A stretch of DNA of 64,000 nt, taken from Collinsella sp. An7. Its GTDB lineage: Bacteria; Actinomycetota; Coriobacteriia; Coriobacteriales; Coriobacteriaceae. The stretch is from positions 1 to 64,000 of the forward strand of contig NZ_NFHP01000004.1 of the NCBI RefSeq assembly GCF_002159335.1. Direction: 5' to 3'. The notes under the pieces were generated by a model. That model worked only from the letters and a program-made list of their open reading frames with translations. It made no database searches and was not told where the DNA came from. Shown piece by piece: positions 30,379-48,816 of the stretch; the first letter of the stretch is position 1, and every line of letters begins with the position of its first letter. Made by a program: the position numbers and the translations under genes.

Positions 30379-32504
30379 GCATGACCGAAACGTACGGGGA
30401 ACACCCCCGCGGCAAGCACTTCAAGGCCCCTGCGCCCGAGGCGCCCGGCGTGGCGCGCCCGGACGAGACGGCCGTTTTCATCACGGCGGCCGAGCGTGCG
30501 CGCGTGACCCCGCACCCCCGTACCAGTGCAGACGAGACCTCGGTCTTCCTCGCGATGGCCGAGCAGTCGGTGAACGCAACACCCGCACGCCCCGCCGTCA
30601 CCGCCCCGACCCCCTCTCATCCTTTTTCTTCCATCAGCGAGGGCCCAGGCTCGACCGGCAACCTAGCAGCCGCCCAAGGCGGAGAGACGGGGCTCTTCCC
30701 GCCCCTCTACAACGGTGCGTCGGGCAGTTCCTCCGTGCCGGGCGCGGGCATCCCTTCGGACGTGGTCCTCGTGAATTCGAGCTCTTGCTCGAATTCCCTG
30801 CGGGAAACGTCCTGCGGGATGCCCGCGCCCGGCACGGAGGAACTGCCCGACGGCTCGGCTGCCGAGGCCGACGATGACGACTTCTCCGCCTCGGGCGACT
30901 ACGAGAGCGTCGGCCGCTCGGCGGGCCTTATGACCTTGCTGATCGTCATCTCGCGCCTCACCGGCTTTGCCCGAACCTGGTTCATGGGCCTGGCCTTCGG
31001 CGTGTCGCTCCTCGCCTCGTCCTACAACATCGCCAACAACCTGCCCAACATGCTCTACGAGCTCGTGATGGGCGGCATGCTTGTCACGGCGTTTCTGCCC
31101 GTCTACATGGACGCGCGCCGGCTCGGCGGCAAGGAGGGCGCCAACGCCTACGTGGGGAACCTTCTCTCGATCCTGCTCGTCGTGCTCGGCGTGGCGTCGG
31201 TCGCGGCGTGCGTCTTTGCCCCGGCGCTCATCTGGACGCAGTCGTTCATGAGCTCGGGCGAGGAGATGGAGACGGCGGTCTACTTCTTCCGCATCTTTGC
31301 GTTCCAGATTCTGTTCTACGGGCTCGGCTCGGTCTTCTCGGGCGTGCTCAACGCGCACCGCGACTACTTCTGGAGCAACGTCGGCCCCATCCTCAACAAC
31401 GTGGTCGTTATCGCGAGCTTTGTGGCATTTCCCTTCCTGCAGCAGGTGAGCGACGCCGTGGCCATCACCGTGCTCGCCGTGGGCACCACCGCGGGCGTGT
31501 TCGTGCAGATGGCCTGCCAGATTCCGGCGCTCGGACGCCATGGGATCCACCCGCGCCTGCACATCGACCTGCGCGACCCGCTTCTGCGCAAGACGGTCTC
31601 GCTCGGCGTGCCCACCATCATTGCCACCCTCTGCACGCTCGTCACGAGCTCGGTCATGAACTCCACCGCGCTCGCCGTGCAGCCCGGCACCGGCTCGTCT
31701 GTTATCGCCTACGCGCGCCTGTGGTACACACTGCCCTACGCGCTTCTGGCCGTTTCGCTCAACACGGCGCTCTACACCGAGCTCGCGCGCGACGCCACCC
31801 GCGGCGACGACGACGCGGTGCGCGCCGGCCTCTCGCGCGGCATTGCCCAGCAGTTCTTTGTGCTCATCCCCTTTGCGCTCTACCTCATGGTCTTCAGCTT
31901 CCCGCTCAACATGATCTACTGTGCGGGCAAGTTCGACCTCGAGGGCGTGGGGCTCGTTGCCGAGTACCTGCGCTTCCTGGCGCCGTCGCTGCCGCTCTAC
32001 GGCGTGTGCATGCTCATGCAGAAGGGCTGCTCGGCGCTGCGCAACATGCACCCCTATGCCGCCTTTATCTTGGCGGGCGCCGTGGCCGAGATCGCCTGGT
32101 CGGTCACCTTTGCGCTCGGCCTCGGCGGCGGGATGCCCTTCATCGCGCTCTCCATGACGGCGAGCTACCTCGTCTCTGACATCGGCGCCTTCTGGTGGAT
32201 GCGCCGTCGCCTGCACGGTCTCAGGGCCAAGCAGATTGTCCACGGCATTTTGGCGGGCCTCTTGCTCGGCGGCCTTGGAGCGGCGGCGGGCGCAGGTGTG
32301 CTCGCGCTGCTGGAGACCTTCGTGGCGCCGCTCGTCACCTACCTGCCCGACGGCACCGCCCAGACGGCCGGCATGCTCCAGACCGTCGCCTACCTGGCGG
32401 TGGCGGGTATCGTCTCGCTCGTGGTGACCTTTGGCCCGGCCATTGCGCTCAAGTTCCCCGAGGCCGATATGTTCCGCTCGATCCTCCGCCGCGTGAGGCG
32501 CTAG
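30375..32504 (+). CDS. murJ: lipid II flippase MurJ with long N-terminal extension
   Basis: Flips lipid II across the membrane for peptidoglycan synthesis. The protein has 709 aa. The MATE/MOP-fold core begins at about residue 180 (SVGRSAGLMTLLIVISRLTGFART) and has about 14 membrane segments, with the family NIANNLPNMLYELVMGGML near 215-235. The first 180 residues are hydrophilic and probably disordered. They contain three related motifs DETAVF, DETSVF and GETGLF (Thr32, Thr55, Thr105) and a 135-bp palindromic element (residues 115-160). The start overlaps ybaK by 4 nt (ATGA). An internal ATG near 30930 would give a bare core protein, so dual starts are possible. Confidence 0.9.
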   Translation: MSMTETYGEHPRGKHFKAPAPEAPGVARPDETAVFITAAERARVTPHPRTSADETSVFLAMAEQSVNATPARPAVTAPTPSHPFSSISEGPGSTGNLAAAQGGETGLFPPLYNGASGSSSVPGAGIPSDVVLVNSSSCSNSLRETSCGMPAPGTEELPDGSAAEADDDDFSASGDYESVGRSAGLMTLLIVISRLTGFARTWFMGLAFGVSLLASSYNIANNLPNMLYELVMGGMLVTAFLPVYMDARRLGGKEGANAYVGNLLSILLVVLGVASVAACVFAPALIWTQSFMSSGEEMETAVYFFRIFAFQILFYGLGSVFSGVLNAHRDYFWSNVGPILNNVVVIASFVAFPFLQQVSDAVAITVLAVGTTAGVFVQMACQIPALGRHGIHPRLHIDLRDPLLRKTVSLGVPTIIATLCTLVTSSVMNSTALAVQPGTGSSVIAYARLWYTLPYALLAVSLNTALYTELARDATRGDDDAVRAGLSRGIAQQFFVLIPFALYLMVFSFPLNMIYCAGKFDLEGVGLVAEYLRFLAPSLPLYGVCMLMQKGCSALRNMHPYAAFILAGAVAEIAWSVTFALGLGGGMPFIALSMTASYLVSDIGAFWWMRRRLHGLRAKQIVHGILAGLLLGGLGAAAGAGVLALLETFVAPLVTYLPDGTAQTAGMLQTVAYLAVAGIVSLVVTFGPAIALKFPEADMFRSILRRVRR
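30718..30852. repeat. structured palindromic element, copy 1 (inside murJ)
   Basis: Perfect 37-bp outer arms (30718-30754 / 30816-30852). Inside them are a middle stem GGACGT (30758-30763) / ACGTCC (30807-30812), internal-loop strands GGTCCTCGT (30764-30772) and CTGCGGGAA (30798-30806), and a 10-bp inner hairpin GAATTCGAGC / GCTCGAATTC with loop TCTT. Length 135 nt equals 45 codons, so the murJ frame stays open. The loop strands are identical in copy 2 at 48618-48726, but the stems are unrelated in sequence. Confidence 0.9.
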
Positions 32505-32508
32505 CCCT

Positions 32509-34491
32509 ATGGCCGATACGCAGTGGCACGATGCCCCGGGTGATACCGACCGCACGGAGCACATCGACGAGACCCTCATCGCGCCGGCGCCGGGCATTGC
32601 CCCGAGCCTCGCCGAGCAGGTGGCGCGCGTTCCCACGAGCCCGGGGTGCTATCTCTGGAAGGACGCGGCCGGTACCGTTATCTACGTGGGCAAGGCCAAG
32701 AACCTGCGCGCCCGCATGCGCCAGTACGTGCAGCTCACCGATGAGCGGCAGAAGATTCCGCTCATGATGCAGCTCGTGGCGTCGTTTGACTATCTCGTGG
32801 TGGAGAGCGAGCACGAGGCGCTCGTGCTGGAGCGCAACCTCATCGGCCAATACCACCCCTACTTCAACGTCGACTTCAAGGACGACAAAAGCTATCCCTT
32901 TATCGCCCTCACCAAAGGGGACCTCTTTCCGGCCATCAAGTACACGCGCGAGCGGCACCGTCCGGGGACGCGCTATTTTGGACCCTATACCGACAGCCGC
33001 GCCGCCCGCGACACCATCGACACCATCCGTAAGGTCATCCCCATCTGCATCGCCAACTGCGCGGAGTGGAAACGCTGCCGACGCCTTGCCGAGGCGCACA
33101 AGGGCGACGAGGACATCCTCGGGCTCATCATGGCCGAGAAGGGGCGGCCCTGCTTTGACTACCACGTGGGCCGCGGCCCCGGGGCGTGCGTGGGCGCCAT
33201 CACCCCCGAGGACTACGCCAAGAACGTCCGGCGCGTAGAGCGCTTTCTCTCGGGCAAGCGCAGCGAGGTGACGGGCGAGCTCAGGGCTGAGATGGCCGAG
33301 GCCGCCGCCGACCTCGACTTTGAGCGGGCGGCGCGCCTCAAGCGTCGGCTCGAGGTGATCGACGGGCTCGATGACCGCCAGCAGGTGGTCTTTCCCTCCC
33401 GCGTGGACCTCGACGTCATCGGGTTTTACCGCGAGGAGACGATTGCCGGTGCTTGCGTCTTTGCCGTGCGCGAGGGGCGCACGGTCAGAAGCTGCGAGTT
33501 CATTCTCGACAAGGGGCTCGACGTGGACGAGGAGGAGCTCGTCTCGGGCTTTGTGAAGCGCTACTACGACGAGACGGCCGATATCCCCGCCGAGGTCGAC
33601 GTGGCGGTTGAGCTTGCCGACGCCGAGGTGCTGGGGGAGTGGCTCACCGAGAAGCGCGGGCACATCTGCCGACTGCATCGCCCGCAGCGCGGCGAGAAGC
33701 GCCACCTGCTCGAGACCTGCGAACGCAACGCCCGCCACGCCCTCATGCGCTACATGATGCGCACGGGCTACGCGGACGACCGGACCAACCAGGCGCTTCT
33801 TGAGCTCGAGAGCGCGCTGGCGCTGCCCGCGCCGCCACTGCGTATCGAGTGCTTCGATATCTCGACCATCCACGGACGCTTTACCGTGGCTTCGATGGTG
33901 GTCTTTACCAACGGGCGGCCCGACAAGAGCCAGTACCGGCGCTTCCGCGTGCGGAGCGTTACGGGGGAGGCCAACGACTTTCTCTCGATGCAGGAGGTGT
34001 TGGGCCGTCGTTACGCCTCGGAGCGCATGGCCGACGAGCGGTTTGGCAGCCGTCCCGACCTGCTCGTGGTCGACGGCGGCAAGCCGCAGCTCACCGCCGC
34101 GCTCACCCAGCTCTCGGAGCTCGGGCTCGACATCCCGGTCTGCGGCCTCGCCAAGGCCGACGAGGAGGTCTTTGTGCCCTGGGACGACACGCCCGTGGTG
34201 CTGCCCAACGGCTCGGCCTCGCTCTACCTCATCAAGCAGGTCCGCGACGAGGCGCACCGCTTTGCCATCACCTTCCACCGCGAGCTGCGCGACAAGGCCA
34301 TGACCGTGAGTGTGCTCGACGAGGTGGAGGGCGTGGGCCCCACGCGCAAGAAGGCCATCATGCGGCACTTTGGCTCGATGAAGCGCCTGCGCGCGGCAAG
34401 TGTGGACGACATCGCAGCGGTCAAGGGCGTCCCGCGCCAGGTGGCCGAGGCGGTGTACGAGACGCTGCGGGCCTGGGAGAACGCCGACTAA
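32509..34491 (+). CDS. uvrC: excinuclease ABC subunit C
   Basis: Dual-incision nuclease of nucleotide excision repair, 660 aa. The GIY-YIG domain (about 40-125) includes TSPGCYLWKD and IYVGKAKNLRARMRQYV, the UVR domain follows near 255-290 (AAADLDFERAARLKRRLEVID), then the UvrC RNase H-like endonuclease (ECFDISTIHG, LVVDGGKPQL), and the C-terminal helix-hairpin-helix pair (EVEGVGPTRKKAIMRHFGS, VKGVPRQVAEAVYETL). An N-terminal extension of about 38 aa precedes the usual start. ATG 32509 has no clear ribosome binding site but lies 4 nt after the murJ stop, suggesting coupled translation. It heads the conserved actinobacterial uvrC-rapZ-whiA-gap block. Confidence 0.96.
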   Translation: MADTQWHDAPGDTDRTEHIDETLIAPAPGIAPSLAEQVARVPTSPGCYLWKDAAGTVIYVGKAKNLRARMRQYVQLTDERQKIPLMMQLVASFDYLVVESEHEALVLERNLIGQYHPYFNVDFKDDKSYPFIALTKGDLFPAIKYTRERHRPGTRYFGPYTDSRAARDTIDTIRKVIPICIANCAEWKRCRRLAEAHKGDEDILGLIMAEKGRPCFDYHVGRGPGACVGAITPEDYAKNVRRVERFLSGKRSEVTGELRAEMAEAAADLDFERAARLKRRLEVIDGLDDRQQVVFPSRVDLDVIGFYREETIAGACVFAVREGRTVRSCEFILDKGLDVDEEELVSGFVKRYYDETADIPAEVDVAVELADAEVLGEWLTEKRGHICRLHRPQRGEKRHLLETCERNARHALMRYMMRTGYADDRTNQALLELESALALPAPPLRIECFDISTIHGRFTVASMVVFTNGRPDKSQYRRFRVRSVTGEANDFLSMQEVLGRRYASERMADERFGSRPDLLVVDGGKPQLTAALTQLSELGLDIPVCGLAKADEEVFVPWDDTPVVLPNGSASLYLIKQVRDEAHRFAITFHRELRDKAMTVSVLDEVEGVGPTRKKAIMRHFGSMKRLRAASVDDIAAVKGVPRQVAEAVYETLRAWENAD

Positions 34492-34522
34492 CTCTGCCGG
34501 CCCACTGCAGCACGACCTCGGC

Positions 34523-34610
34523 CCTCAATCGTCGGTCGCCGCGCGCAGGTCATTTGGGGACGTGTTCCGTTTGACCCATTTTCACGGGGCAGAGGGACAG
34601 GGGCTTTGTC
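34523..34610. repeat. composite intergenic repeat copy C
   Basis: Three parts in order: CCTCAATCGTCGGTCG (34523-34538); the core CATTTGGGGACGTGTTCC followed by GTTTGACCCATTTT (34551-34582); and a small hairpin GGACA-GGGGCTT-TGTCC (34594-34610). The same three parts recur in the same order at 62212-62468. It ends about 46 nt before the rapZ -10 box. Confidence 0.85.
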
Positions 34611-34656
34611 CTACGAGGGGCGCGCGACCAAGTGTCTGTCCCCACCGCCGCACGGT

Positions 34657-34662
34657 TATACT
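34657..34662 (+). promoter_or_regulatory. candidate rapZ -10 box
   Basis: TATACT, 34 nt before the rapZ start codon; the -35 region (TGTCTG) is weak. Confidence 0.4.
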
Positions 34663-34696
34663 TATCCACAGGCTTAACGTGTTGAGGAGGTAGACC

Positions 34697-35632
34697 ATGC
34701 CGAGCGACGAGGCGATCCATAGCAAGGAGAACGCCGAGCGCGTGCCCGATATCGTGGTCATCACCGGTATGTCCGGTTCGGGCCGCACGCAGGCGATGCA
34801 CGTCTTTGAGGACATGGGCTACTTCTGCATCGACAACCTGCCGCCCCGCCTCATCCAGCAGCTCGCCGAGCTCGTGGGCATCAACTCGGGCGTGGGGAGG
34901 CATCTCGCCGTTACCTGCGACCTGCGCAGTCAGGGTCTCTTTGACGAGCTTGTCGACGTGATCGAGGCGCTCGAGGAGCACGAGATGTCGGTCGAGGTCG
35001 TCTACCTCGAGGCGTCGGACGAGGTCCTCATGCGCCGCTATAACGAGAACCGCCGTCGGCACCCGCTCGCTGCCCCCGGTGAGAGCACCTCCGGCGCCAT
35101 CGCGCGCGAGCGCCGGCAGCTCGCCGTGGTGCGCGACCGCGCCGACATGATCATCGACACCTCGCACCTCGCCACCTCCGCGCTGCGTGCCCGCCTGCGA
35201 GCTGCCTTCTCCGAGCTCACCGACCAGCAGCTCATGGAGGTGCACGTCTTCTCCTTCGGCTTTAAGCACGGCCTGCCCGCTGAGGCGGACATCATGATCG
35301 ACGTGCGCTTTCTGCCCAACCCCTTCTACGACCCCGAGATGCGCAAGCTCACCGGCAAGGACGAGAAGGTCGCCTCCTTTGTGCTCGACCACCCCAAGAC
35401 CCAGCAGTTCTGGCGCGCCTGGTGCCAGCTGCTCGATGCGGTCATGCCCGGGTACGTGGCCGAGGGCAAGCCGCAGCTCTCTATCGCGGTGGGGTGCACG
35501 GGCGGTCAGCACCGCTCGGTTGCGATCGCCGAGGCCACAGGGCGCTACCTCGCGGGGCAGCAGTACCACGTGACGGTCTCGCACCGCGATCTTGCCCGCG
35601 CCAACCGCACGGCCGAGGGCGAGATCCACTGA
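34697..35632 (+). CDS. rapZ: RapZ/YvcJ-family RNase adapter / nucleotide-binding protein
   Basis: The protein has 311 aa. Walker A is GMSGSGRTQA (24-33), followed by the family MGYFCIDNLPP, then SHRDL and the C-terminal GCTGGQHRSVAIAE signature. In E. coli RapZ controls GlmS by steering RNase E; in Gram-positives YvcJ has nucleotide-binding and competence-linked roles, so the precise job here is not readable. ATG 34697 follows GAGGAGGTAGACC. The next gene is whiA, 75 nt on; the yvcK gene normally found between them is missing. Confidence 0.95.
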   Translation: MPSDEAIHSKENAERVPDIVVITGMSGSGRTQAMHVFEDMGYFCIDNLPPRLIQQLAELVGINSGVGRHLAVTCDLRSQGLFDELVDVIEALEEHEMSVEVVYLEASDEVLMRRYNENRRRHPLAAPGESTSGAIARERRQLAVVRDRADMIIDTSHLATSALRARLRAAFSELTDQQLMEVHVFSFGFKHGLPAEADIMIDVRFLPNPFYDPEMRKLTGKDEKVASFVLDHPKTQQFWRAWCQLLDAVMPGYVAEGKPQLSIAVGCTGGQHRSVAIAEATGRYLAGQQYHVTVSHRDLARANRTAEGEIH

Positions 35633-35707
35633 GCGTGCCGGGCGCGTGCGCGTGTCCGCGCGGCGTGAGGCGCCCCGCCCCAACCCGGCTCACAGGAGAG
35701 GAGGAGC

Positions 35708-36634
35708 ATGTCGTTTACGGCCGAGGTGCGCGACGAGCTGTCGCGCTGTGAGCCCGTCTGCGAATACTGCAACCTGGCGACACTTGCGGCGCTCGTGCGC
35801 GTGACGGGCACGCTCTCGATTGCGGGCTCGGGCCGCCGGCTCACGGTGGCAACCGAGACGGGCGCGGTGGCGCGCACCATGATCAACCTCACCCACACGG
35901 TGCTCAAGCTCAAGACCGAGCTCACCCCGCGCCGCTCGGTGCTCCACAAGGTGCGCAACTACCTCATCACCCTCCCCGAGCAGCCGGGGCTCGACAAAGC
36001 GCTCGTGCTGCTCGGCGTGCTCGACCGCAAGGGCAACCTCGTGGCGGGGGTGCCCCGGCATGTGGTGGCTCGCCCGTGCTGCCGGCTCGCCTACTTGCGC
36101 GGCGCGCTCATCGCCGGGGGCTTTGTGGCCGACCCGCGGGGCGACTTTCACCTCGAGATCGCGGTCTCGGGCGAGGAGTTTGCCCGCGGGCTCGCAAAGC
36201 TCATCGAGCAGGAGGGGGTGCGCGCCCGCGTAAACCCGCGCCGCGGGGCCTACGCTGTCTACGTCAAGAGCGCCGAGGATATCTGCCGGCTCCTCACGGA
36301 GCTCGGTGCGACCCGGAGCGTGGCGGGGATCGAGGACGCGCGCGCGATGAAGCTCGTCAAGAACAACGTCAACCGCAAGGTCAACGCCGAGCTTGCCAAC
36401 CAGACGCGCACCGCCGACGCCGCCCAGCACCAGGTTGAGCTCATCCGCCGTGTGGTGGACGAGGGGCTCTACGACACCCTGCCCGGGGCGCTGCGCACCT
36501 TCTGCGACCTGCGCCTGGCGCATCCGGACCTGTCGCTGAGGGACCTCGGGGCCCTCGCCGACCCGCCGCTCAGCAAGTCGGCGCTCTACCACCGGGTCCT
36601 GCGGCTCGAGAAGCTGGTAGGGGAGCGCGAATAG
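35708..36634 (+). CDS. whiA: WhiA, DNA-binding regulator with LAGLIDADG-like fold
   Basis: The protein has 308 aa. Residues 1-85 include MSFTAEVRDELSR and the SIAGSGRRLTVATET region, the centre has the degenerate homing-endonuclease fold (CCRLAYLRGALIAGGFVADPRGDFHLEI), and the C-terminal helix-turn-helix (about 220-305) contains NRKVNAELANQTRTADAA and LRDLGALADPPLSKSALYHRVLRLEKL. In actinobacteria WhiA works with WhiB in cell division genes; in Firmicutes it affects chromosome segregation. ATG follows CAGGAGAGGAGGAGC. The gap 36635-36831 to gap holds only the promoter. Confidence 0.96.
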   Translation: MSFTAEVRDELSRCEPVCEYCNLATLAALVRVTGTLSIAGSGRRLTVATETGAVARTMINLTHTVLKLKTELTPRRSVLHKVRNYLITLPEQPGLDKALVLLGVLDRKGNLVAGVPRHVVARPCCRLAYLRGALIAGGFVADPRGDFHLEIAVSGEEFARGLAKLIEQEGVRARVNPRRGAYAVYVKSAEDICRLLTELGATRSVAGIEDARAMKLVKNNVNRKVNAELANQTRTADAAQHQVELIRRVVDEGLYDTLPGALRTFCDLRLAHPDLSLRDLGALADPPLSKSALYHRVLRLEKLVGERE

Positions 36635-36754
36635 CGGCGGCAGGTCGGTTCTCGGGTGCTTGATGCGGGCCCGCGTGGATTTTGAGACCCACCGTCAACA
36701 TCAGCGTTCGGTCAAAAAGTCCGTAATGACGCGACTGAGATTTTGAAAAAAAGG

Positions 36755-36760
36755 TATATT
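36755..36760 (+). promoter_or_regulatory. candidate gap promoter (-10)
   Basis: TATATT in an AT-rich patch (GAAAAAAAGG), unusual for this sequence, 71 nt before the gap start codon. The leader between them contains a GCGGGCACC-CGCCCGCGG-type GC hairpin (36790-36810) and the strong ribosome binding site AAAGGAGAC. Confidence 0.4.
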
Positions 36761-36831
36761 GGTTGAGTGGTTTGTTTGTGGGCCTCGACAGCGGGCACCC
36801 GCCCGCGGGGGTCTAACGAAAGGAGACACGC

Positions 36832-37857
36832 ATGGCAGTAAAGGTTGCTATCAACGGCTTCGGTCGCATCGGCCGCCTGGCGTTCCGTCAGATGTTCGGT
36901 CACGAGGGCTCCGAGATCGTCGCCATTAACGACCTCACCTCCCCGGACATGCTCGCTTACCTGCTGAAGTACGACACCACGCAGGGCAACTACGCTCGCG
37001 ACCACAAGGTCGAGGCCGGCGAGGACTCCATCACCGTCGACGGCAAGAAGATCACCATCTACAAGGAGGCCGACGCTAACAACCTCCCGTGGGGCGAGCT
37101 CGGCGTTGACGTCGTCCTCGAGTGCACCGGCTTCTACACCAGCAAGGAGAAGGCTCAGGCCCACATCAACGCTGGCGCCAAGAAGGTCGTCATCTCCGCT
37201 CCTGCGGGCAACGACCTCCCCACGATCGTCTACAACGTGAACCATGAGCAGCTCACGGCTGAGGACAACATCATCTCCGCCGCTTCCTGCACCACCAACT
37301 GCCTCGCCCCGATGGCCAAGGGTCTCAACGACTTCGCGCCCATCGTGTCCGGCATCATGACCACCATTCACGCCTACACCGGCGACCAGATGCCGCTCGA
37401 CGGCCCGCAGCGCAAGGGCAACAAGCGCCGCAGCCGCGCTTGCGCTCAGAACATCGTCCCCAACAGCACCGGTGCCGCCAAGGCCATCGGTCTGGTGCTC
37501 CCCGAGCTCAACGGCAAGCTCATCGGTGCCGCCCAGCGCGTCCCGACCCCGACCGGCTCGATCACCAACCTCTACTGCGTGGTTGACAAGACCGTGACCG
37601 TCGACGAGGTCAACGCCGCCATGAAGGCCTACGCCGAGACCATCCCCGAGACCTTCGGCTACAACACCGACGACATCGTCTCCTCCGACATCATCGGCGA
37701 GACCCACGGCTCGATCTTCGACGCCACCCAGACCATGGTCCAGGACCTCGGCAACGGCCAGAGCCTCGTTCAGGTCACCTCTTGGTACGACAACGAGAAC
37801 TCCTACACCTCGCAGATGGTCCGCACCATCAAGTACTTCGAGAAGTTCGTCGCCTAA
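36832..37857 (+). CDS. gap: glyceraldehyde-3-phosphate dehydrogenase, type I
   Basis: Oxidises glyceraldehyde 3-phosphate to 1,3-bisphosphoglycerate. The protein has 341 aa. The NAD site is [16 protein letters not shown] (7-22), the catalytic segment [13 protein letters not shown] contains the active Cys at about 154, followed by [10 protein letters not shown] and the catalytic His. RVPTPTGS and [14 protein letters not shown] are also conserved. Its start follows AAAGGAGACACGC. Codon use is strongly biased, as expected for a highly expressed gene. A strong terminator-like hairpin follows, so it may also be expressed alone. Confidence 0.98.
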
Positions 37858-37895
37858 GTGCCGACGCACGACTCTAAGCGCTTTTAGCGTCTGAC

Positions 37896-37941
37896 AGGGG
37901 CGCGGCCTTTGGGTTTGGGCCCAGAAGCCGCGCCCCTTTTT
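37896..37941 (+). terminator. intrinsic terminator after gap
   Basis: Stem AGGGGCGCGGC (37896-37906) / GCCGCGCCCCT (37927-37937), 20-nt loop, then TTTTT. It should reduce read-through from gap to pgk. Confidence 0.85.
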
Positions 37942-38025
37942 CGATGGGCGCCCGGGAGGCGAGCCCGCTCGACCCGCGCCCTCGACAGATGGAAGTCCCA
38001 CCAACCCGACGAAAGGCAGATGCAC

Positions 38026-39979: not shown

Positions 39980-41547
39980 TGGCAGAGAACAAGCGCCATC
40001 TTCCGGCGCTCCTCGTGATCATGGACGGCTTTGGCCTGGCTCCGGCCGGCGACAACAACGCCGTCTTTAAGGCCGAGAAGCCCTATCTCGACAAGCTCTG
40101 GAACGAGTATCCGCACACCACGCTCGGCGCTTCGGGCGAGGACGTGGGCCTGCCTGCGGGTCAGATGGGCAACTCCGAGGTCGGGCACCTCAACATCGGT
40201 GCCGGCCGCATCGTGTTCCAAGAGCTCAGCCGCATCAACAACTCCATCATCGACGGCTCGATCGAGGAGAACCCCACGCTCGCCAAGGCGATGGAGGACA
40301 CCGGCCGCCACGGCGGCACCGTCCACCTGCTCGGTCTTGTCTCGCCCGGTGGCGTGCACTCCATGCAGCGCCACGGCGAGGTCCTGTCGGTGCTCGCTGC
40401 CATGCACGGCGTGGAGAAGATTCGCTTCCACTGCTTCATGGACGGCCGCGACGTCGATCCGCACTCCGGCGCGGGTTACATCAAGACCCTCAAGGAGAAC
40501 CTCGAGGCGCTCTCCAAGTACACCGGCGTCGACGCCCGCATCGCCACGGTCTCCGGCCGCTACTGGGCCATGGACCGCGACAACCGCTGGGAGCGCGTCG
40601 AGCGCGCCTACGACGTCATCACCCTGCCCCAGGAGGGCCCGGATGTCGATCCGGTCGAGGGTGTCGAGGCCTACTACGAGCGCGACGAGCGCGGCGACGA
40701 GTTCGTTGAGCCCTTCGCCTGCCATAACGAGGGCGTGCACGACGGCGACGCGATGGTGTTCTTCAACTTCCGTCCCGATCGCGCCCGCGAGATGACGCGC
40801 GCCTTTACCGAGCCCGATTTTGACGGCTTTGAGCGCAAGGTTGCCCCCAAGCTCTCGCACTTCGTCACCATGACGGAGTACGACGATACGTTCAAGAACG
40901 TCGAGGTGGCCTTCCCCAAGACGTTCCCCGAGAACGTGCTGGCCGACGTCATCGCGCAGAACGGCCTCAAGCAGCTGCACACCGCAGAGACCGAGAAGTA
41001 CGCCCACGTGACGTTCTTCCTCAACGGCGGCGTCGAGGAGCCCAAGGAGGGGGAGGAGCGCGTGCTCGTTCCCTCGCCGAAGGTTGCCACCTACGACCTG
41101 CAGCCCGAGATGTCGGAGCCCGAGGTCACCGAGAAGCTCGTTGCCGCCATCGAGAACGATGAGGCCGACTTCTACATCGTGAACTATGCCAACTGCGACA
41201 TGGTGGGTCACACCGGCGTCTTTGACGCTGCCGTCAAGGCCGTTGAGGCCGTGGACGATGGCCTCTCCAAGGTGATTCCCGCGATTCTCGCCAAGGGCGG
41301 TTTTGCGCTCATCACCGCCGACCACGGCAACGCCGACCACATGTACGACGTGGACGATGCAGGCGAGAAGCACCCCTTCACCGCCCATACCACCAACCGC
41401 GTGCCGTTTATCGTGGTCGACCCCAAGGCCAAGCTCACCGGGATCGAGAGCGGGCGCCTGTCGGACATCGCGCCGACGCTGCTCACTCTTGCCGGGCTCA
41501 AGCCCTCAGCCGAGATGACCGGTCGCGTCCTCGCCACCGAGGAGTAA
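39979..41547 (+). CDS. gpmI: 2,3-bisphosphoglycerate-independent phosphoglycerate mutase
   Basis: Mn-dependent isomerase converting 3- to 2-phosphoglycerate. The protein has 522 aa. The first metal Asp is in VIMDGFGLAP (9-18), and the catalytic Ser in GQMGNSEVGHLNIG near residue 63. The phosphotransferase domain has HCFMDGRDVDPHSGAGY and FNFRPDRAREMT, and the second metal half has NYANCDMVGHTG and ITADHGNADHMYD. It is one base downstream of the tpiA stop codon start. An intrinsic terminator and two repeat copies follow. Confidence 0.97.
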   Translation: MAENKRHLPALLVIMDGFGLAPAGDNNAVFKAEKPYLDKLWNEYPHTTLGASGEDVGLPAGQMGNSEVGHLNIGAGRIVFQELSRINNSIIDGSIEENPTLAKAMEDTGRHGGTVHLLGLVSPGGVHSMQRHGEVLSVLAAMHGVEKIRFHCFMDGRDVDPHSGAGYIKTLKENLEALSKYTGVDARIATVSGRYWAMDRDNRWERVERAYDVITLPQEGPDVDPVEGVEAYYERDERGDEFVEPFACHNEGVHDGDAMVFFNFRPDRAREMTRAFTEPDFDGFERKVAPKLSHFVTMTEYDDTFKNVEVAFPKTFPENVLADVIAQNGLKQLHTAETEKYAHVTFFLNGGVEEPKEGEERVLVPSPKVATYDLQPEMSEPEVTEKLVAAIENDEADFYIVNYANCDMVGHTGVFDAAVKAVEAVDDGLSKVIPAILAKGGFALITADHGNADHMYDVDDAGEKHPFTAHTTNRVPFIVVDPKAKLTGIESGRLSDIAPTLLTLAGLKPSAEMTGRVLATEE

Positions 41548-41550
41548 CCT

Positions 41551-41584
41551 GACTCATTTTGGGACGGGGTAATTTTCGTTCATA
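41551..41584. repeat. intergenic repeat fragment (diverged core)
   Basis: ACTCATTTTGGGACGGGGTAATTTTCG resembles copy B (CATTTGGGGACGGGGTCGTTTTGACC) and lies between the gpmI stop and its terminator. Confidence 0.55.
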
Positions 41585-41585
41585 G

Positions 41586-41628
41586 GGAGGGCCGCCGCAG
41601 CCACCAGGTTGCGGCGGCCCTCCTTTTT
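41586..41628 (+). terminator. intrinsic terminator after gpmI
   Basis: Stem GGAGGGCCGCCGCA (41586-41599) / TGCGGCGGCCCTCC (41610-41623), 10-nt loop, then TTTTT (41624-41628). Confidence 0.92.
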
Positions 41629-41636
41629 GGGTCACG

Positions 41637-41709
41637 TGGGTCATTTGGGGACGTGTTCCATCTGACCCATTTTGGGAAGAAAAATGGGTCAGATGGAACA
41701 CGTCCCCAA
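41637..41709. repeat. intergenic repeat copy D, perfect 29-bp palindrome
   Basis: Arms 41645-41673 and 41681-41709 are exact reverse complements (29 bp), loop GGGAAGA. Each arm contains the family core TTGGGGACGTGTTCCATC followed by TGACCCATTTT, so this is a head-to-head pair of two repeat units. The left unit also carries the terminal TGGGTCA at 41637-41643. Confidence 0.95.
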
Positions 41710-41724
41710 CTGCACCAAACGGTG

Positions 41725-41733
41725 TGGTAGCAT
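41725..41733 (+). promoter_or_regulatory. putative extended -10 promoter of secG
   Basis: TGG-TAGCAT, 39 nt upstream of the secG start. The place where a -35 would sit (about 41705-41710) is the end of the repeat D palindrome. Confidence 0.5.
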
Positions 41734-41772
41734 ATTGAACGTTCTAGCAAGACACCGAAGGAGTCGTAACCT

Positions 41773-42027
41773 ATGGGTCCGTTCCAGATCGTTATCTTTG
41801 CCGTGTGGGCGCTCTCCACGCTCGCGCTCATCGCGCTCGTGCTCATGCACTCCGGTAAGGGCACCGGCGTGTCCGACATGATCGCTAGCTCGCTCTATAA
41901 CGCGAGCGCTGCGACCGGCGTTATGGAGAAGAACCTCGACCGTCTCACCATCATCGTCTCGGTGGTCTTTGCCGTGTGCGTGGTGCTCTGCATGTTCTTC
42001 TTCCCGCAGGGAATCGTGGGCATTTAA
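41773..42027 (+). CDS. secG: SecG preprotein translocase subunit
   Basis: Small subunit of the SecYEG channel, 84 aa. Two membrane segments (about 5-24 and 56-80) flank a cytoplasmic loop with the SecG-typical HSGKGTGVSDM and a LYNASAATGVMEKNLDRLT region. The start follows GAAGGAGTCGTAACCT. Its place after the glycolytic block agrees with other actinobacteria (gap-pgk-tpi-secG). Confidence 0.93.
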   Translation: MGPFQIVIFAVWALSTLALIALVLMHSGKGTGVSDMIASSLYNASAATGVMEKNLDRLTIIVSVVFAVCVVLCMFFFPQGIVGI

Positions 42028-42125
42028 GCTGCGTTTAAAACTGCGCTCGAGCACTGCTCCCGGGGAGCCGCACGACCGCAAGCGCTAAAGCCCGCACCCC
42101 AGCGTAAGCCAAATCCAGCCGTATC

Positions 42126-42152
42126 GAGGGGCCGCTCGTAAGGGCGGCCCTC
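42126..42152 (+). terminator. hairpin after secG, possible terminator
   Basis: GAGGGGCCGC (42126-42135) / GCGGCCCTC (42144-42152) with one bulged G, followed only by TTGTAT, so it would be a weak terminator. Confidence 0.5.
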
Positions 42153-42478
42153 TTGTATACAGGCGCTTCGCACCCCGCTCTTCGCGATTCCCACACAAAG
42201 CTTGAGGTCCGAGTCAGCCTGAAGAAACAGCTTGGAAACAATCCGTTCACCGACCGCTCACGGCGGGCGGGCGAAACCAAAAATAGTGCAGATAAAGGAG
42301 CATATACTCCACTAAACCAGAGAGGGCCCAGCACGTTTGCCGAAAAACCATCCCGGATGCACGGTGAATCGGGTAAGGTAATCTGCAATGCCTTGATGCT
42401 GCCACCCTTGTGCGTGGCGTGCGTCACGGTTGCGTAAGGGGTGTGCAAAGAGCGCACCTAGCCTAAAGGAGGAAATGC
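42153..42478 (+). other. gene-free oppA upstream region
   Basis: No convincing gene; a 94-codon frame starting at 42153 has no family resemblance. A TATACT box lies at 42303-42308 without a good -35. The stretch is less GC-rich than its neighbours around 42230-42320, as is usual for regulated promoters. No known riboswitch was recognised. Confidence 0.4.
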
Positions 42479-44143
42479 ATGGCACAGATCAACCTGAATC
42501 GTCGCCAGTTCGTGGGCAGCGCCCTTGCTGCGAGCGCGCTTGCCGCGCTGGCCGGCTGCACCAGCAACGGCGGCACCACCGCCGGTTCCGCGGGCAGCGC
42601 TCCGGCTGCGGCCCCCGAGGTCGGCGAGAACTATATCAGCTTCTACCTCTCCGAGCCGGCGTACATCGACCCGTACAACGCGCAGGAGAACCAGGGTACC
42701 GCGGTTGTCCGCGCTACCTTTGACGGCCTTGTGACTTGGGACTGGGCCGCCAACGACGTTGTGCCGCTGGCCGCCGCCGAGCTCCCGACCGTCTCCGAGG
42801 ACGGCCTCACCTACACCTTCAAGCTGCGCGAGGGCATGAAGTTCCACAACGGCGACCCCGTGGACGCCGCTTCCTTCAAGCGCGGCTGGGAGCGCCTGGC
42901 CGACTCGACCATGAAGTCCCCGTCCGAGATCGGCTACCACCTCGCCCCCGTGGCCGGTTACGCCGAGATGGCCGCCGGCGACGCCGACGAGATTTCCGGC
43001 CTCGTCGCCGTTGACGACCTCACCTTCCAGGTGACCCTCACCGACCCGATGGCCGACTTCACCGCCGTGTGCTGCCACCCGGGCCTCGTGCCCGTTCCGC
43101 AGGCCGCCCTCGACGACCCGGCGGCGTTCCTCGAGCAGCCCATCGGCAACGGCCCCTTCAAGCTTGACGAGGCTTGGCAGCACAACCAGTACATCATCGC
43201 CTCCAAGTTTGAGGACTACTACGGTGAGGCCCCCAAGATCGATGGTGTGTACTTCTCCATCCAGGCCGACCCCGACACCGCCTACCGTGAGCTGCAGGCC
43301 GGTTCCATCGACTTTGCGATGATCCCGACCGGACAGATCCAGGAGGCCGTGGACCAGTACGGTCTCTCCGACGACGGCTTTACCGTCACCCCGGGCAAGC
43401 AGGTCCTCACGGGCACCGAGCTCTCGACCTACTACCTCGTCGTCAACCTCAACGACCCGGCGCTCTCCGATGTCAACGTGCGTCGCGCCATCTCGCTGGC
43501 CATCGACCGCCAGGCTATCGTCGATACCCTCTACGAGGGCTATCGTGAGCCGGCCACCTCGATCATGCCGCTCTCCATCGACGACAACGAGGAGAACGTC
43601 TGGGAGTACTGCAAGTACGACCCCGAGCAGGCCAAGCAGATTCTGGCCGACGCCGGCTACGCCGACGGCGACATCAAGGTGAGCCTGAGCTACAACGGCG
43701 ACGGCGGCCACGAGGACCTCATGTCCAAGGTGCAGCAGGACCTCGAGGCGGTGGGCATCACCGTGACCCAGGACACCACCGAATGGGCCACCTACCTCAA
43801 CAACCTGTCCGACGGTAACTATCAGCTCGCCCGCCTCGGCTGGACCGCTGACTACCCGACCATGGACAACTTCCTCTACCCGAACTTCTTCTCCACGGCC
43901 GACAACAACTACGGTGGTTACAACAACCCCGACGTTGACGCCGCTATGCTGGCCGCCCGCCAGATCCAGGACGAGGAGGAGCGCAAGGCTGCTTACCGTC
44001 AGATCTGCCACCAGGTGGGCGAGGACATGCCGGTCATCCCGATTATGTACTATGCGCACAACTATGTGGGCACCGATCGTCTCGCGAGCTTCTACTACGA
44101 CTCGCAGACCATCCCGCACTTCGAGACCGCTGAACTCGCGTAA
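42479..44143 (+). CDS. oppA: oligopeptide ABC transporter substrate-binding lipoprotein
   Basis: SBP family 5 protein of 554 aa. The N-terminus has a twin-arginine-like signal (LNRRQFVGSALAASALAAL) ending in the lipobox LAGC with lipidation Cys27. Features are EPAYIDPYNAQENQGTAV, LTYTFKLREGMKFHNGDPV (family signature) and NDPALSDVNVRRAISLAIDRQ. The protein is anchored outside the membrane and delivers peptides to OppBCDF. The ATG follows TAAAGGAGGAAATGC, a very strong ribosome binding site. A hairpin after its stop and a separate oppB promoter suggest it is expressed more than the rest. Confidence 0.94.
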   Translation: MAQINLNRRQFVGSALAASALAALAGCTSNGGTTAGSAGSAPAAAPEVGENYISFYLSEPAYIDPYNAQENQGTAVVRATFDGLVTWDWAANDVVPLAAAELPTVSEDGLTYTFKLREGMKFHNGDPVDAASFKRGWERLADSTMKSPSEIGYHLAPVAGYAEMAAGDADEISGLVAVDDLTFQVTLTDPMADFTAVCCHPGLVPVPQAALDDPAAFLEQPIGNGPFKLDEAWQHNQYIIASKFEDYYGEAPKIDGVYFSIQADPDTAYRELQAGSIDFAMIPTGQIQEAVDQYGLSDDGFTVTPGKQVLTGTELSTYYLVVNLNDPALSDVNVRRAISLAIDRQAIVDTLYEGYREPATSIMPLSIDDNEENVWEYCKYDPEQAKQILADAGYADGDIKVSLSYNGDGGHEDLMSKVQQDLEAVGITVTQDTTEWATYLNNLSDGNYQLARLGWTADYPTMDNFLYPNFFSTADNNYGGYNNPDVDAAMLAARQIQDEEERKAAYRQICHQVGEDMPVIPIMYYAHNYVGTDRLASFYYDSQTIPHFETAELA

Positions 44144-44185
44144 GGTACGGGTTTGCCGCATAACGGCTCGGTAGGGTCGTAGCCC

Positions 44186-44214
44186 AAGGGGCGTCGCTCG
44201 CGCGGCGCCCCTTT
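44186..44214 (+). terminator. attenuator-like hairpin between oppA and oppB
   Basis: Stem AAGGGGCG (44186-44193) / CGCCCCTT (44206-44213) followed by a short T-run (TTT). Likely a partial terminator that keeps oppA mRNA in excess. Confidence 0.55.
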
Positions 44215-44355
44215 GCATGCGGGGCGCGGCGCGGCAGGGCGTCCTGGCCCGCGGCGCGCCGGGACCGTGCTCCCACAAAAATGTTGACAGTGTGTTACCG
44301 CGATATGGTGAAACGCATGAAATGGGGTGGGTGCATCTCGCTCATTCGCATATTT

Positions 44356-44385
44356 TTGATGAGGTACCGTGTTTTCCGGTATACT
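44356..44385 (+). promoter_or_regulatory. oppB promoter
   Basis: TTGATG (-35, 44356-44361) and TATACT (-10, 44380-44385) are 18 nt apart and lie 59 nt before the oppB start. Confidence 0.65.
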
Positions 44386-44444
44386 CACACTTTACGGCTC
44401 TAAAGCGCCGTAGTCGTATAAGCCAGACAAGGGAGGGTATCGCC

Positions 44445-45482
44445 GTGGTCAAGTACATTGCCAAGCGAATCCTACAGTTCATCCCTGTCTTCCTTGGCGT
44501 GACGCTGATCCTCTTCATCATGCAGAACGTGGTGCCGGGCGATCCCATCAAGCTGATCGCCGGCGAAAGGAAGCTCGACCCGCAGGTTGAACTGAATCTC
44601 CGTGCGACACACGGGTTCATCGAGACGGATGCCGACGGCAAGATCATCTACGATGAGAACGGCGACACGATCGAGACGCCGATGTGGAAGCGCTACGTCA
44701 CCTATCTGTCGGACTTGCTCCACGGAGATCTCGGCACGTCGTACCAGCGCGGCACCCCGGTGTCTGAGATCATCGCGCAGAAGTACCCCTACACCGTTCA
44801 GCTCGCCTTGGTGGCCATTGTGATTGAGGCCGTGGTGGGTATCGGCGCGGGCATCATCTCGGCAATCAAGCGCTACTCGTTCTGGGATATCCTCGTTACC
44901 CTTGTGACCTCGCTTCTGGTGGCCATGCCGGCGTTCTGGTTCGGCATGCTCCTCCAGCTCATCTTTGGCGTGTGGCTCAAGGACCTCACCGGTGGCGCCC
45001 TGTCGCTGCCCATCTCCGGCGTGGCCGGCCCCATCGCCAAGTACCCCGCGTGGATGTACTACATCCTCCCGGCCGTGACCCTCGCCGCGGTTTCGACCGC
45101 CTACACCGCGCGCATCATGCGCTCGCAGCTTCTGGACGTTATGAACCAGGACTACATCCGTACCGCCAAGGCTAAGGGCCTCTCCAAGAGCGCGATCATC
45201 CGCAAGCACGCGCTCAAGAACGCGCTCATCCCCGTGGTGACCTACGTGGGTATGGACTTTGGCGCCATGCTCGCCGGCGCCATCCTGACCGAGACGGTCT
45301 TTAGCTGGCCCGGCATCGGTCGCGAGACCTATATCGCCATCACCCAGCGCGACTGGCCCATCGTTATGGGCACCGTGACGGTGATCGTGGTCGTGGTCAT
45401 GATCATCAACCTTATCGTCGACGTGAGCTACGCCTTCCTCGACCCGCGCATCAGGCTCGGCAGCTCCAAGAACGAGGGCTAG
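44445..45482 (+). CDS. oppB: oligopeptide ABC transporter permease OppB
   Basis: Inner-membrane permease of 345 aa. The first membrane segment (about 9-29, RILQFIPVFLGVTLILFIMQ) and NVVPGDPI are typical of OppB/DppB. An external loop of about 75 residues is followed by five more membrane segments, with the cytoplasmic EAA motif region RTAKAKGLSKSAIIRKHALKN contacting the ATPases. GTG 44445 is chosen because GGGAGGG precedes it; a longer frame from 44217 lies over the promoter. Confidence 0.95.
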   Translation: MVKYIAKRILQFIPVFLGVTLILFIMQNVVPGDPIKLIAGERKLDPQVELNLRATHGFIETDADGKIIYDENGDTIETPMWKRYVTYLSDLLHGDLGTSYQRGTPVSEIIAQKYPYTVQLALVAIVIEAVVGIGAGIISAIKRYSFWDILVTLVTSLLVAMPAFWFGMLLQLIFGVWLKDLTGGALSLPISGVAGPIAKYPAWMYYILPAVTLAAVSTAYTARIMRSQLLDVMNQDYIRTAKAKGLSKSAIIRKHALKNALIPVVTYVGMDFGAMLAGAILTETVFSWPGIGRETYIAITQRDWPIVMGTVTVIVVVVMIINLIVDVSYAFLDPRIRLGSSKNEG

Positions 45483-45494
45483 GGGAGGAGCAGC

Positions 45495-46444
45495 ATGAAA
45501 TATCCTCACGCAATTCCTGCCGACGCGCACATCCAGACGCCCGCGCATGCCGCGAGCTCGAGCGACAGCGCTGCGTCGCGTACGCTCTGGGGCGACGCCT
45601 GGGGCCGTCTTAAGAAGAACAAGCTCGCCATCATCGCGGCGATCTGGATCGTGTTCATCGTGATCGTTGCCCTTTCGGCCGACTTGTGGGTGCCGCAGGT
45701 CCTCGGCGACCCCAACGCCACCGCTGCCGGCGTGAGCATGGCCGACGCCTCGCGCCTGCCGCCGTCGCTCCAGCACCCCTTCGGTACCGACACGCTCGGC
45801 CGTGACGTGCTCTCGCGCGTCATCTACGGTGCGCGCGTCTCGCTCACCGTCGGTGTGGTGGCCACGGGCATCTCCACGGCCATCGGTCTGGTGATGGGCG
45901 CCCTCGCTGCGTACTACGGCGGCATCTGGGACACCATCATCATGCGCCTTGCTGACATCTTCTTGGCGTTCCCCTACACGCTCTTTGTCATTGCCATGAT
46001 CGCCGTGATCGGCAACGGCATCCAGAACGTGTTCATCGCCATCGGCATCCTCGGATGGCCGAGCATCGCCCGCGTCTTCCGCTCGGCGATCCTCTCGGTC
46101 AAGCAGAACGACTACGTGGACGCCGCACGCGCCATGGGTGCTTCCGACGCGCGCATCATCGTGCGCCACATCTTCCCTAACTCCGTGGCCTCCATCGTGG
46201 TCTACGCCACGATGAACATCGGCGGCGCCATCCTCACCGAGAGCGCTCTGTCGTTCCTCGGCATGGGCGTCGTGCCGCCCGATCCCTCGTGGGGCACGCT
46301 CATCCAGGACGGTCAGCAGTACCTGCAGACCCAGCCCTGGCTCATGATCCTGCCGGGTCTCGCGATCCTCTCCACGGTGCTCGCGTTCACCCTGCTGGGT
46401 GACGGTCTGCGCGACGCGCTCGACGTTAAGATGAAGGATGCATA

Positions 46445-46445
<1 letters not shown>
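45495..46445 (+). CDS. oppC: oligopeptide ABC transporter permease OppC
   Basis: Second permease, 316 aa. A cytoplasmic N-terminus of about 40 residues precedes the first membrane helix (about 44-66), followed by the OppC-type HPFGTDTLGRDVLSRVIYGARVSL and four to five further helices. The EAA loop is DAARAMGASDARIIVRHIFPNS, and the end reads FTLLGDGLRDALDVKMKD. The start follows AGGGGAGGAGCAGC. The stop overlaps oppD by one base. Confidence 0.95.
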
Positions 46446-47581
<1,136 letters not shown>

Positions 47582-48601
47582 ATGGCAGAGAACACCCCCC
47601 TGCTCAAGGTCGAGCACCTCTCCAAGGAGTTCCCGGCGGAGTCCGGCGTCTTTGCGAGCCGCTTTGCCAAGAAGGTCTCGGCTGTTAACGACGTGAGCTT
47701 TGAGATCAACGCGGGCGAGACCCTCGGCCTGGTGGGCGAGTCCGGTTGCGGCAAGTCCACGACGGGTCGCTCCATCATGCGCCTCACGCGCCCGACCGCC
47801 GGCCACGTATACTTTGAGGGCCGCGACGTTGCCAAGATGAACAAGAAGGAGCTCAAGGACCTTCGCCGCCAAATGCAGTTCATCTTCCAGGATCCGTACG
47901 CGAGCTTGAACCCGCGTATGACCATCGGCGAGATCATCTCGGAGCCGCTGCAGATCCATGGTGACGGCCGCAGCCAGGGCGAGCGCATGAAGTACGTGCG
48001 CGAGCTCCTCGACGTGGTGGGTCTTAACCCCGAGCACATCAACCGCTATCCGCACGAGTTCTCGGGCGGTCAGCGCCAGCGCATCGGTATCGCGCGCGCC
48101 TTTGCCCTGCACCCCAAGCTCATCATCTGCGACGAGCCGGTGTCGGCCCTCGACGTGTCGATCCAGGCGCAGGTGCTGAACCTCCTCAAGGAGCTGCAGA
48201 AGCAGTTTGGCACGGCCTATCTCTTCATCGCGCACGACCTCTCCGTCGTTCAGCACATCTCGGACCGCGTGGCCGTGATGTACCTCGGCAAGATCGTGGA
48301 GCTCTCCGACTGGAAGAGCCTCTACGCTCAGCCGAACCACCCTTACACGCAGTCTCTGCTCTCGGCCGCGCCCATTCCGGACCCGGACCTGCAGAAGAGC
48401 CGTCGACGCATCATCCTCGCCGGCGATCCGCCCTCGCCGCTCGACCCGCCGAGCGGGTGCCGCTTCCATACGCGCTGCCCGATCGCGCAGGCCAAGTGCG
48501 CCGAGGAGCAGCCGGAGTTCCGCGAGGTCGAGCCTGGGCACTTCTGCGCGTGCCACTTTGCGCAGCCGTTCCCGATCAAGGAATCGCATATTGACCTGTA
48601 G
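47582..48601 (+). CDS. oppF: oligopeptide ABC transporter ATP-binding protein OppF
   Basis: Second ATPase, 339 aa. Walker [15 protein letters not shown]-loop [17 protein letters not shown], signature [16 protein letters not shown], Walker [14 protein letters not shown]-loop [10 protein letters not shown]. The C-terminus has [14 protein letters not shown], the Opp-family Cys motif. It forms a heterodimer with OppD. The ATG follows GAAGGAGGCATAA, one base after the oppD stop codon. Confidence 0.97.
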
Positions 48602-48617
48602 GTGAGGTGCTCCCGGC

Positions 48618-48726
48618 GGCGGGTGGGCTTGCCGTGTTTCCCTCTGGCGTGGTCCTCGTCCTTTGCGCGTCCGCGCGCAAAGGACTGCGGGAAACGCCGT
48701 CGGGAAACACGGCAAGCCCACCCGCC
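48618..48726. repeat. structured palindromic element, copy 2 (intergenic)
   Basis: Perfect 25-bp outer arms (48618-48642 / 48702-48726). Middle stem GGCGT (48646-48650) / ACGCC (48694-48698), loop strands GGTCCTCGT (48651-48659) and CTGCGGGAA (48685-48693), and a 10-bp inner hairpin CCTTTGCGCG / CGCGCAAAGG with loop TCCG. Loop strands are identical to copy 1 (30718-30852). It starts 16 nt after the oppF stop. Confidence 0.9.
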
Positions 48727-48781: not shown

Positions 48782-48816
48782 GGGACCTCGTCCTGGTTGG
48801 GACGGGGTCCCTTCTT
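48782..48816 (+). terminator. likely terminator of the opp operon
   Basis: Stem GGGACCTCGTCC (48782-48793) / GGACGGGGTCCC (48800-48811) with one G-U pair, loop TGGTTG, followed by TTCTT. The 376-nt gap before the next gene holds this, the structured element, and no coding frame with family similarity. Confidence 0.7.

What the first reader, a model, noticed from the sequence alone, without database searches (positions are those of the whole stretch)
30718..48726. Two-copy structured element with identical internal loops but unrelated perfect stems
Seen: copy 1 (30718-30852) and copy 2 (48618-48726) share CGTGGTCCTCGT on one side and CTGCGGGAAACG on the other. Everything that pairs is different, yet stays paired: outer arms 37 bp against 25 bp with no sequence similarity, middle stem GGACGT/ACGTCC against GGCGT/ACGCC, and inner 10-bp hairpins. 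Conserved loop plus compensated stems is the signature of a conserved structure in RNA or folded single-stranded DNA. The perfection and variability of the outer arms suggest they are made from local sequence, for example a target copied in inverted form when the element arrives. I know of no named family that fits. Inference: a mobile or self-templating structured element.
Basis: partly seen in the sequence, partly recalled or inferred. Interest (0 to 1): 0.85.

Follow-up and report, generated by a model that had tools for sequence, protein, structure and literature searches.

The report
Conserved hairpin repeat after gene ends
The two odd hairpins belong to a larger family of short folded elements that mostly sit just after the stop codons of genes in this bacterial lineage, keeping one inner loop nearly fixed while their stems change freely but stay paired, which points to a working structure rather than a target copied on arrival.

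Summary
Covariance models find 16 sites in this genome, further copies across its taxonomic family, and a few matches beyond it. On 63 copies all 31 stem pairs show double-sided changes (covariation 0.76; 0.17 shuffled, 0.09-0.13 slid), while the loop GUCCUCG/CUGCGG(G)A is nearly invariant: a real conserved structure.

Most copies lie in 3' untranslated regions. In co-directional gene pairs 64 point with the genes and 11 against; 84 of 88 same-strand copies start 5-60 nt past a stop codon. Some genes (oppF, fhs, a Ca2+-ATPase gene) carry a copy in several genera. In orthologues the arms change mostly by compensated double substitutions, and in one genome a nearly identical copy, arms included, follows two different genes: both speak against arms copied from the target. 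Copy 1, inside murJ, is an exception (1 of 26 murJ loci).

It matches no Rfam family at threshold, lacks GTAG/CGTC REP tags, and usually lacks a terminator T-run. Best reading: a REP-like palindromic repeat acting as a 3'-UTR RNA element whose loop is a recognition site. The molecular role is inferred; a folded-DNA mobile element is the main rival. Interest 0.6.

The parts
30718..30754 (+). copy 1, outer stem, 5' arm (37 bp, perfect)
30758..30763 (+). copy 1, middle stem 5' side GGACGT (after 3-nt loop TTC 30755-30757)
30764..30772 (+). copy 1, conserved loop, 5' side GGTCCTCGT
30773..30796 (+). copy 1, variable capping hairpin (10 bp, loop TCTT)
30798..30806 (+). copy 1, conserved loop, 3' side CTGCGGGAA
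30807..30812 (+). copy 1, middle stem 3' side ACGTCC (then 3-nt loop TGC 30813-30815)
30816..30852 (+). copy 1, outer stem, 3' arm
30375..32504 (+). murJ-like reading frame that contains copy 1 in frame (about residues 115-159, before the MurJ domain)
48618..48642 (+). copy 2, outer stem, 5' arm (25 bp, perfect)
48646..48650 (+). copy 2, middle stem 5' side GGCGT (after 3-nt loop TCT)
48651..48659 (+). copy 2, conserved loop, 5' side GGTCCTCGT
48660..48683 (+). copy 2, variable capping hairpin (10 bp, loop TCCG)
48685..48693 (+). copy 2, conserved loop, 3' side CTGCGGGAA
48694..48698 (+). copy 2, middle stem 3' side ACGCC (then 3-nt loop GTC)
48702..48726 (+). copy 2, outer stem, 3' arm
47582..48601 (+). 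oppF-like ABC transporter ATPase gene upstream of copy 2
   Evidence: orthologue in G052 named by NCBIfam; orthologues
48799..48811 (+). weak terminator-like site downstream of copy 2 (not more than chance in the scan)

Best explanation
A dispersed palindromic repeat family that works as an RNA element at the 3' ends of mRNAs. Shown: a long, usually perfect outer stem, a 3x3 internal loop, a short middle stem, a large internal loop of nearly fixed sequence (GUCCUCG / CUGCGG(G)A) and a variable capping hairpin; stems free in sequence but held in pairing; copies mostly in sense just behind stop codons; copies at some genes shared between genera; copies now and then duplicated as whole hairpins, arms included. 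Inferred: it is transcribed at the mRNA tail, where the rigid stem shapes the 3' end (block to 3'-to-5' decay, or a processing or termination aid), and the fixed loop is the recognition site of a protein or nuclease. The arms need only be double-stranded, hence their freedom; selection, perhaps helped by template-switch correction of one arm from the other, keeps them paired. Copy 1 in murJ is taken as a misplaced, probably recent copy, tolerated because it is in frame in a poorly conserved N-terminal extension.
For: Covariation 0.82 against 0.18 shuffled on 29 copies and 0.76 against 0.17 on 63, with the loop columns at 1.7-2.0 bits. Sense position: co-directional pairs 64 with and 11 against, by gene group 32 and 11, p 0.001; strict-core sites alone 54 and 8; 84 of 88 same-strand copies 5-60 nt past a stop. 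Same genes in several genomes: oppF and fhs 7 each, Ca2+-ATPase and Band 7 genes 6 each, groEL 4. Orthologous copies change by 56 double Watson-Crick changes against 34 one-sided. Copies not in sense behind a stop have somewhat more unpaired cells, 5.5% against 3.4%, p 0.04, weak. T-run after the stem in 17 of 109, mirror side 0 of 109.
Against: No transcript or binding data. 11 copies are antisense in co-directional pairs and copy 1 is inside a gene. G-U pairs are only 2.3% of stem cells, low for selection on RNA alone, though no working control was obtained. Most copies lack a T-run. G048 and G049, same genus, have no copy, so the element is dispensable. REPs in general also lie mostly downstream of genes (PMC3733652, passages), so position alone does not prove function.
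Confidence: 0.5

Rival explanations
1. A mobile DNA hairpin: the fixed loop is the site of a transposase or recombinase that reads folded single-stranded DNA; the 3'-UTR position reflects where insertions are tolerated or where single strands are exposed.
For: Whole-hairpin copies at new sites with identity ending at the hairpin (G054); shared arms among loci in G058/G060 and in G411; copy 1 in a gene, 1 of 26 murJ loci; few G-U pairs; copy borders a 6.8 kb segment present in G053 and not in G050.
Against: Orientation bias in co-directional pairs; same genes carry copies across genera; no link to Y1 transposases: G048 and G049 have them without copies, G051, G055 and G047 have copies without them. 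No target-site duplication is evident by eye at the one clear new copy.
Confidence: 0.27
2. Ordinary intrinsic terminators that share a core by common descent or gene conversion, with no special function of the core.
For: Position behind stop codons; at oppF at least five genomes without a copy have a short hairpin with a T-run instead (G048, G049, G001, G003, G019, by eye); 17 of 109 copies have a T-run.
Against: 92 of 109 have no T-run; the loop is near-invariant while the stems are not, which a plain terminator would not need.
Confidence: 0.13
3. One reading: outer arms are new inverted copies of the target made when the element arrives.
For: Perfect, locus-specific arms; for copy 1 the outermost 14 bp match no other copy and no alignable empty site exists.
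Against: Arms travel with the element, are shared among loci and drift mainly by compensation in orthologues.
Confidence: 0.04

Closest known systems
REP repetitive extragenic palindromes, GTAG and CGTC super-families (PMC3733652, passages; PMC12306157, passages)
   Same: Dispersed hairpins, mostly downstream of genes, some inside genes, thought to act as RNA.
   Different: No GTAG/CGTC tag; stems far longer than the 5-13 bp given there; sequence information in an internal loop rather than in stem or tag; no Y1 transposase link.
Bacterial MITEs such as ERIC and Correia elements, and Rickettsia palindromic elements (PMC10969869, passages)
   Same: Short non-coding hairpin repeats, transcribed with neighbours; Rickettsia elements insert in frame in genes, as copy 1 does.
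   Different: No common terminal inverted repeat, the arms differ between loci; no target duplication evident.
RNase III processing hairpins and retroregulation (PMC5371410, passages; lambda case otherwise recalled)
   Same: Long hairpin in a transcript; a 3' hairpin acting back on the upstream gene.
   Different: No cleavage data here; no claim of membership.
Integron attC sites (recalled, not searched)
   Same: Folded site behind a gene whose arms may vary in sequence.
   Different: Nearly fixed loop sequence; host genes are mostly housekeeping genes, not cassettes.

Membership tests
GTAG/CGTC REP super-families | GTAG or CGTC next to the foot of the stem | tested here: not met
   On the 5' side GTAG at 1 and CGTC at 4 of 109 sites; complements on the 3' side 1 and 4
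GTAG REPs with RAYT transposases | association with a Y1/RAYT transposase | tested here: not met
   Presence of PF01797 and of the element do not go together in 24 genomes
Intrinsic terminators | G+C-rich stem followed at once by a T-run | tested here: not met
   T-run in 17 of 109; met by a minority only
Rfam families (release 15) | match at or above the gathering score | tested here: not met
   None at the two copies or at the elements of 20 further loci. Below threshold: microRNA-precursor families (best mir-2545, 44.7 bits against 94, E 1.7e-7) and Hairpin-meta1 at E 3.1, as expected of long hairpins
MITE | terminal inverted repeats shared between copies, target-site duplication | tested here: inconclusive
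   Arms not shared between most loci; only one clear new copy looked at by eye, no duplication evident
RNase III processing signal | cleavage by RNase III | not testable with these tools
   needs an enzyme assay or mutant RNA-seq
Integron attC site | conserved R boxes, integron integrase, cassette array | not tested
   resemblance recalled only

The most novel reading that the evidence does not exclude
A 3'-end RNA (or folded-DNA) signal, spread over part of a phylum, whose chief sequence requirement is the internal loop GUCCUCG/CUGCGG(G)A, read by a dedicated, still unknown protein or acting as a catalytic or processing site. Its arms are self-correcting by template switching, so they can drift almost without limit yet stay paired. 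The same hairpin would be both a functional mRNA tail and a unit that can be copied to new genes.
Probability: 0.25. Interest if true: 0.82.

Novelty: new variant of a known kind. Interest (0 to 1): 0.6.

Why it matters
Palindromic repeats are usually recognised by conserved stems or tags. Here the outer and capping stems carry little sequence information and an internal loop carries most of it, so sequence-based repeat finders would tend to miss the family: the exact loop string found 2 of the 16 places in this genome. If the loop binds a protein or nuclease, it marks a set of 3' ends in a little-studied lineage and gives a direct handle on how those mRNA tails are made or protected. The arms are also a natural test of template-switch correction of hairpins: many long stems, many double changes, few intermediates.

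Tried and rejected
A check of the loci fetched by then found an inner and a middle stem of at least 4 bp together only in the two window copies, so the rest are treated as chance; this includes the second genome, G004, of the family-wide exact search (2 of 65 genomes). Two further viral patterns gave 0 and 6 stretches; none of the six matches model R3 at E <= 0.1.

Known ribozymes were considered from memory; Rfam gave only a chance-level Hairpin-meta1 match (E 3.1). Y1 transposase correlation: none. Literature: no paper on this motif appeared in the listings (open-access library only, 6 to 15 rows shown per call; subscription journals and preprints not held).

Coreless hairpins in G171, G173, G032, G001, G395, G046 and G047 match the models by structure and by CCUNCGG/GAAAC pieces but lack the core; they may be a separate or older form. 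Of 109 sites 82 have the strict core and 27 do not, about half of these differing by one or a few bases. The stem, orientation and distance counts over 109 include them; strict-core orientation is given apart. One search covered 29 genomes, mostly chosen because earlier calls had hits there, so 26 of 29 is not a prevalence. For oppF, 30 genomes were searched; four (G002, G004, G057, G059) returned only paralogues of 58-60% identity as best match and were dropped, leaving 26. Gene calls come from a simple codon-usage script; of its 5 'inside a gene' sites some frames look spurious (for instance L310, which follows oppF). A cruder orientation count by gene group, 49 of 64 same-strand, was set aside because convergent gene pairs count as same-strand whichever way the element points. 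A tRNA control for the low G-U share failed, the output held no structure. The arm-extension script gives implausibly short arms for two decayed copies (L243, L244).

Full report
What was claimed and what is there. Copy 1 has a perfect 37-bp outer stem, copy 2 a perfect 25-bp one. The loop pair occurs twice in the window, with no match in 100 shuffles. Both fold far below shuffled energy (z -16.4 and -13.0). No Rfam family reaches its gathering score at the copies or at the elements of 20 further loci. With a lax threshold copy 1 matches microRNA-precursor models (best mir-2545, 44.7 bits against a gathering score of 94), as any long hairpin may, and copy 2 a hairpin-ribozyme model at E 3.1.

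It is a family. A covariance model of the two copies (R1) finds 15 distinct places in the own genome. R2, from 29 copies, finds 16. R1 finds sites in 15 of 64 genomes of the taxonomic family at E <= 0.1. R2 finds them in 21 of 395 genomes of the order at E <= 1e-4 (only 10 candidates per genome were scored, so a lower bound). R3, from 63 copies, finds them in 10 of 396 genomes drawn from the phylum, two of which, G501 and G599, are kin at phylum level only, and in 3 of 16 genomes of G501's order. The G501 sites keep GGUCCUC and CUGCGGAG. Two genomes of the own genus, G048 and G049, have none.

Structure and conservation. On 29 copies 28 of 31 pairs have a change on both sides; covariation is 0.82 against 0.18 in shuffles and 0.07-0.14 when slid. 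On 63 copies it is 31 of 31, 0.76 against 0.17 and 0.09-0.13. These alignments are fitted to the model, which favours it, but the margins are large. The columns of GUCCUCG and CUGCGG carry 1.7-2.0 bits; the outer twelve columns of the outer stem and the capping stem carry 0.1-0.7; the inner three pairs of the outer stem and the middle stem lie between. I gathered 109 non-redundant sites: 82 have the strict core, 27 are near-core or coreless. Over the 109, 93.6% of stem cells are Watson-Crick, 2.3% G-U and 4.1% unpaired.

Where it sits. By a simple gene-calling script 100 of 109 sites are intergenic, 5 inside and 4 overlapping a called gene. In co-directional gene pairs 64 copies point with the genes and 11 against; grouped by upstream gene 32 and 11, p = 0.001; in 21 convergent cases 19 are nearer the upstream gene. 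For strict-core sites alone the co-directional count is 54 and 8. Of 88 copies whose upstream neighbour is on the same strand, 84 start 5-60 nt after its end, median 25. At six loci two copies face each other (L236, L238, L318, L320, L327, L332), the last four being coreless forms. Upstream genes include OppF-like, formate-tetrahydrofolate ligase, a Ca2+-type P-ATPase, GroEL, FtsX, HtrA-like, PNPase and HtpG, ribosomal L24, NrdD and fructose-bisphosphate aldolase, PheT, enolase, ArgS, type III glutamine synthetase and phosphotransacetylase. Many of these are strongly expressed in other bacteria by general knowledge; expression was not measured. Not every host gene is of this kind (two of 30 proteins had no Pfam match and one no NCBIfam match; the last is a Band 7 protein).

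Vertical retention and drift. By upstream-gene clustering oppF and fhs carry a copy in 7 genomes each, a Ca2+-ATPase gene and a Band 7 gene in 6 each, groEL in 4. Among 26 oppF loci 10 carry a copy by R3 (13 rows, two of them opposite-strand rows and one a second, facing copy in G006). At least five of the others show a short hairpin with a T-run at that place (G048, G049, G001, G003, G019, by eye). Among orthologous copies 75-99% identical there are 56 double Watson-Crick changes, 16 single changes to or from G-U, 18 single changes to or from a mismatch and 1 double change involving G-U; pairs of genomes share branches, so these are not independent events. The nrdD copies of G000 and G063, of different genera, share most of one arm, while the other arm of the G000 copy has decayed.

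Spread. In G054 a complete copy, nearly identical to the one after the Ca2+-ATPase gene, follows a 125-residue reading frame about 6 kb away; identity stops at the ends of the hairpin. In G053 a decayed inverted copy borders a 6.8 kb segment that G050 lacks. In G058 and G060 copies after different genes share arms and flanks such as CUCCC and UGCGUUUAC. In G411 two loci share arms. So in these cases arms are carried along, not remade from the target. In murJ the copy is in an open frame (135 nt) and present only in the own genome, 1 of 26 loci; the region is not alignable between relatives, so the origin of its outermost arm stays open.

What it is not. GTAG/CGTC tags are absent (1 and 4 of 109). 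Y1 transposases do not follow the element. A T-run follows the stem in 17 of 109 and on the mirror side in none: some copies may terminate transcription, most would not do so alone. Downstream of copy 2 the scan gives one weak terminator-like site, no more than shuffles give.

How it most likely works. Shown: structure, loop conservation, sense position behind stops, retention at certain genes, occasional whole-hairpin copying. Inferred: it is transcribed as the tail of the upstream mRNA and acts there, with the loop as the recognised part. Published precedents for parts of this: REPs lie mostly downstream of coding regions and many are thought to act as RNA (PMC3733652, passages); REPs within 15 nt of a stop codon are reported to lower translation (PMC12306157, passages; our copies mostly start somewhat further away); Correia elements are reported to be cut by RNase III and ERIC elements to unmask an RNase E site (PMC10969869, passages). 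Stems with many double changes fit template-switch maintenance (PMC8794818, abstract and start of introduction). The low G-U share, for which I have no working control, is the best argument for a DNA-level component; in REPs G-T pairing is said to be frequent.

Verdict. Observation confirmed and enlarged; interpretation partly supported. A new variant of a known kind (palindromic 3'-end repeat) with an unusual division of labour: fixed loop, free paired arms. Interest 0.6.

Noticed in passing
window 41637-41717 and 14361-14410: Two other hairpin repeats (with GGGGACGTG and GGGGACAGG pieces); similar sequences appear in 3' flanks of element loci L235 and L239, so they look like further dispersed palindrome families.
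   Followed up: no
G058 loci L257, L264, L266, L291, 3' of the element: A second dispersed hairpin repeat (about GGGGCTCGGCGCTGCGCGCC) follows the element, up to three times in a row in L266.
   Followed up: partly
L364 (G053), L365 (G054), L366 (G050), L367 (G000), downstream of the Ca2+-ATPase gene: Gene content differs between relatives right after the element, with a second copy at or near the far end in G053 and G054, as if a hotspot of rearrangement.
   Followed up: partly
Y1_Tnp matches against oppF positions: In about a dozen relatives a Y1 transposase-like gene lies roughly 6-8 kb from oppF on the same contig, as if a conserved resident gene; in G000 the only match is on another contig.
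   Followed up: no
L348 (G006) 2536-2657: Copy behind oppF with a capping hairpin much longer than usual, itself long and nearly perfect, and a second facing copy about 190 nt further on.
   Followed up: no
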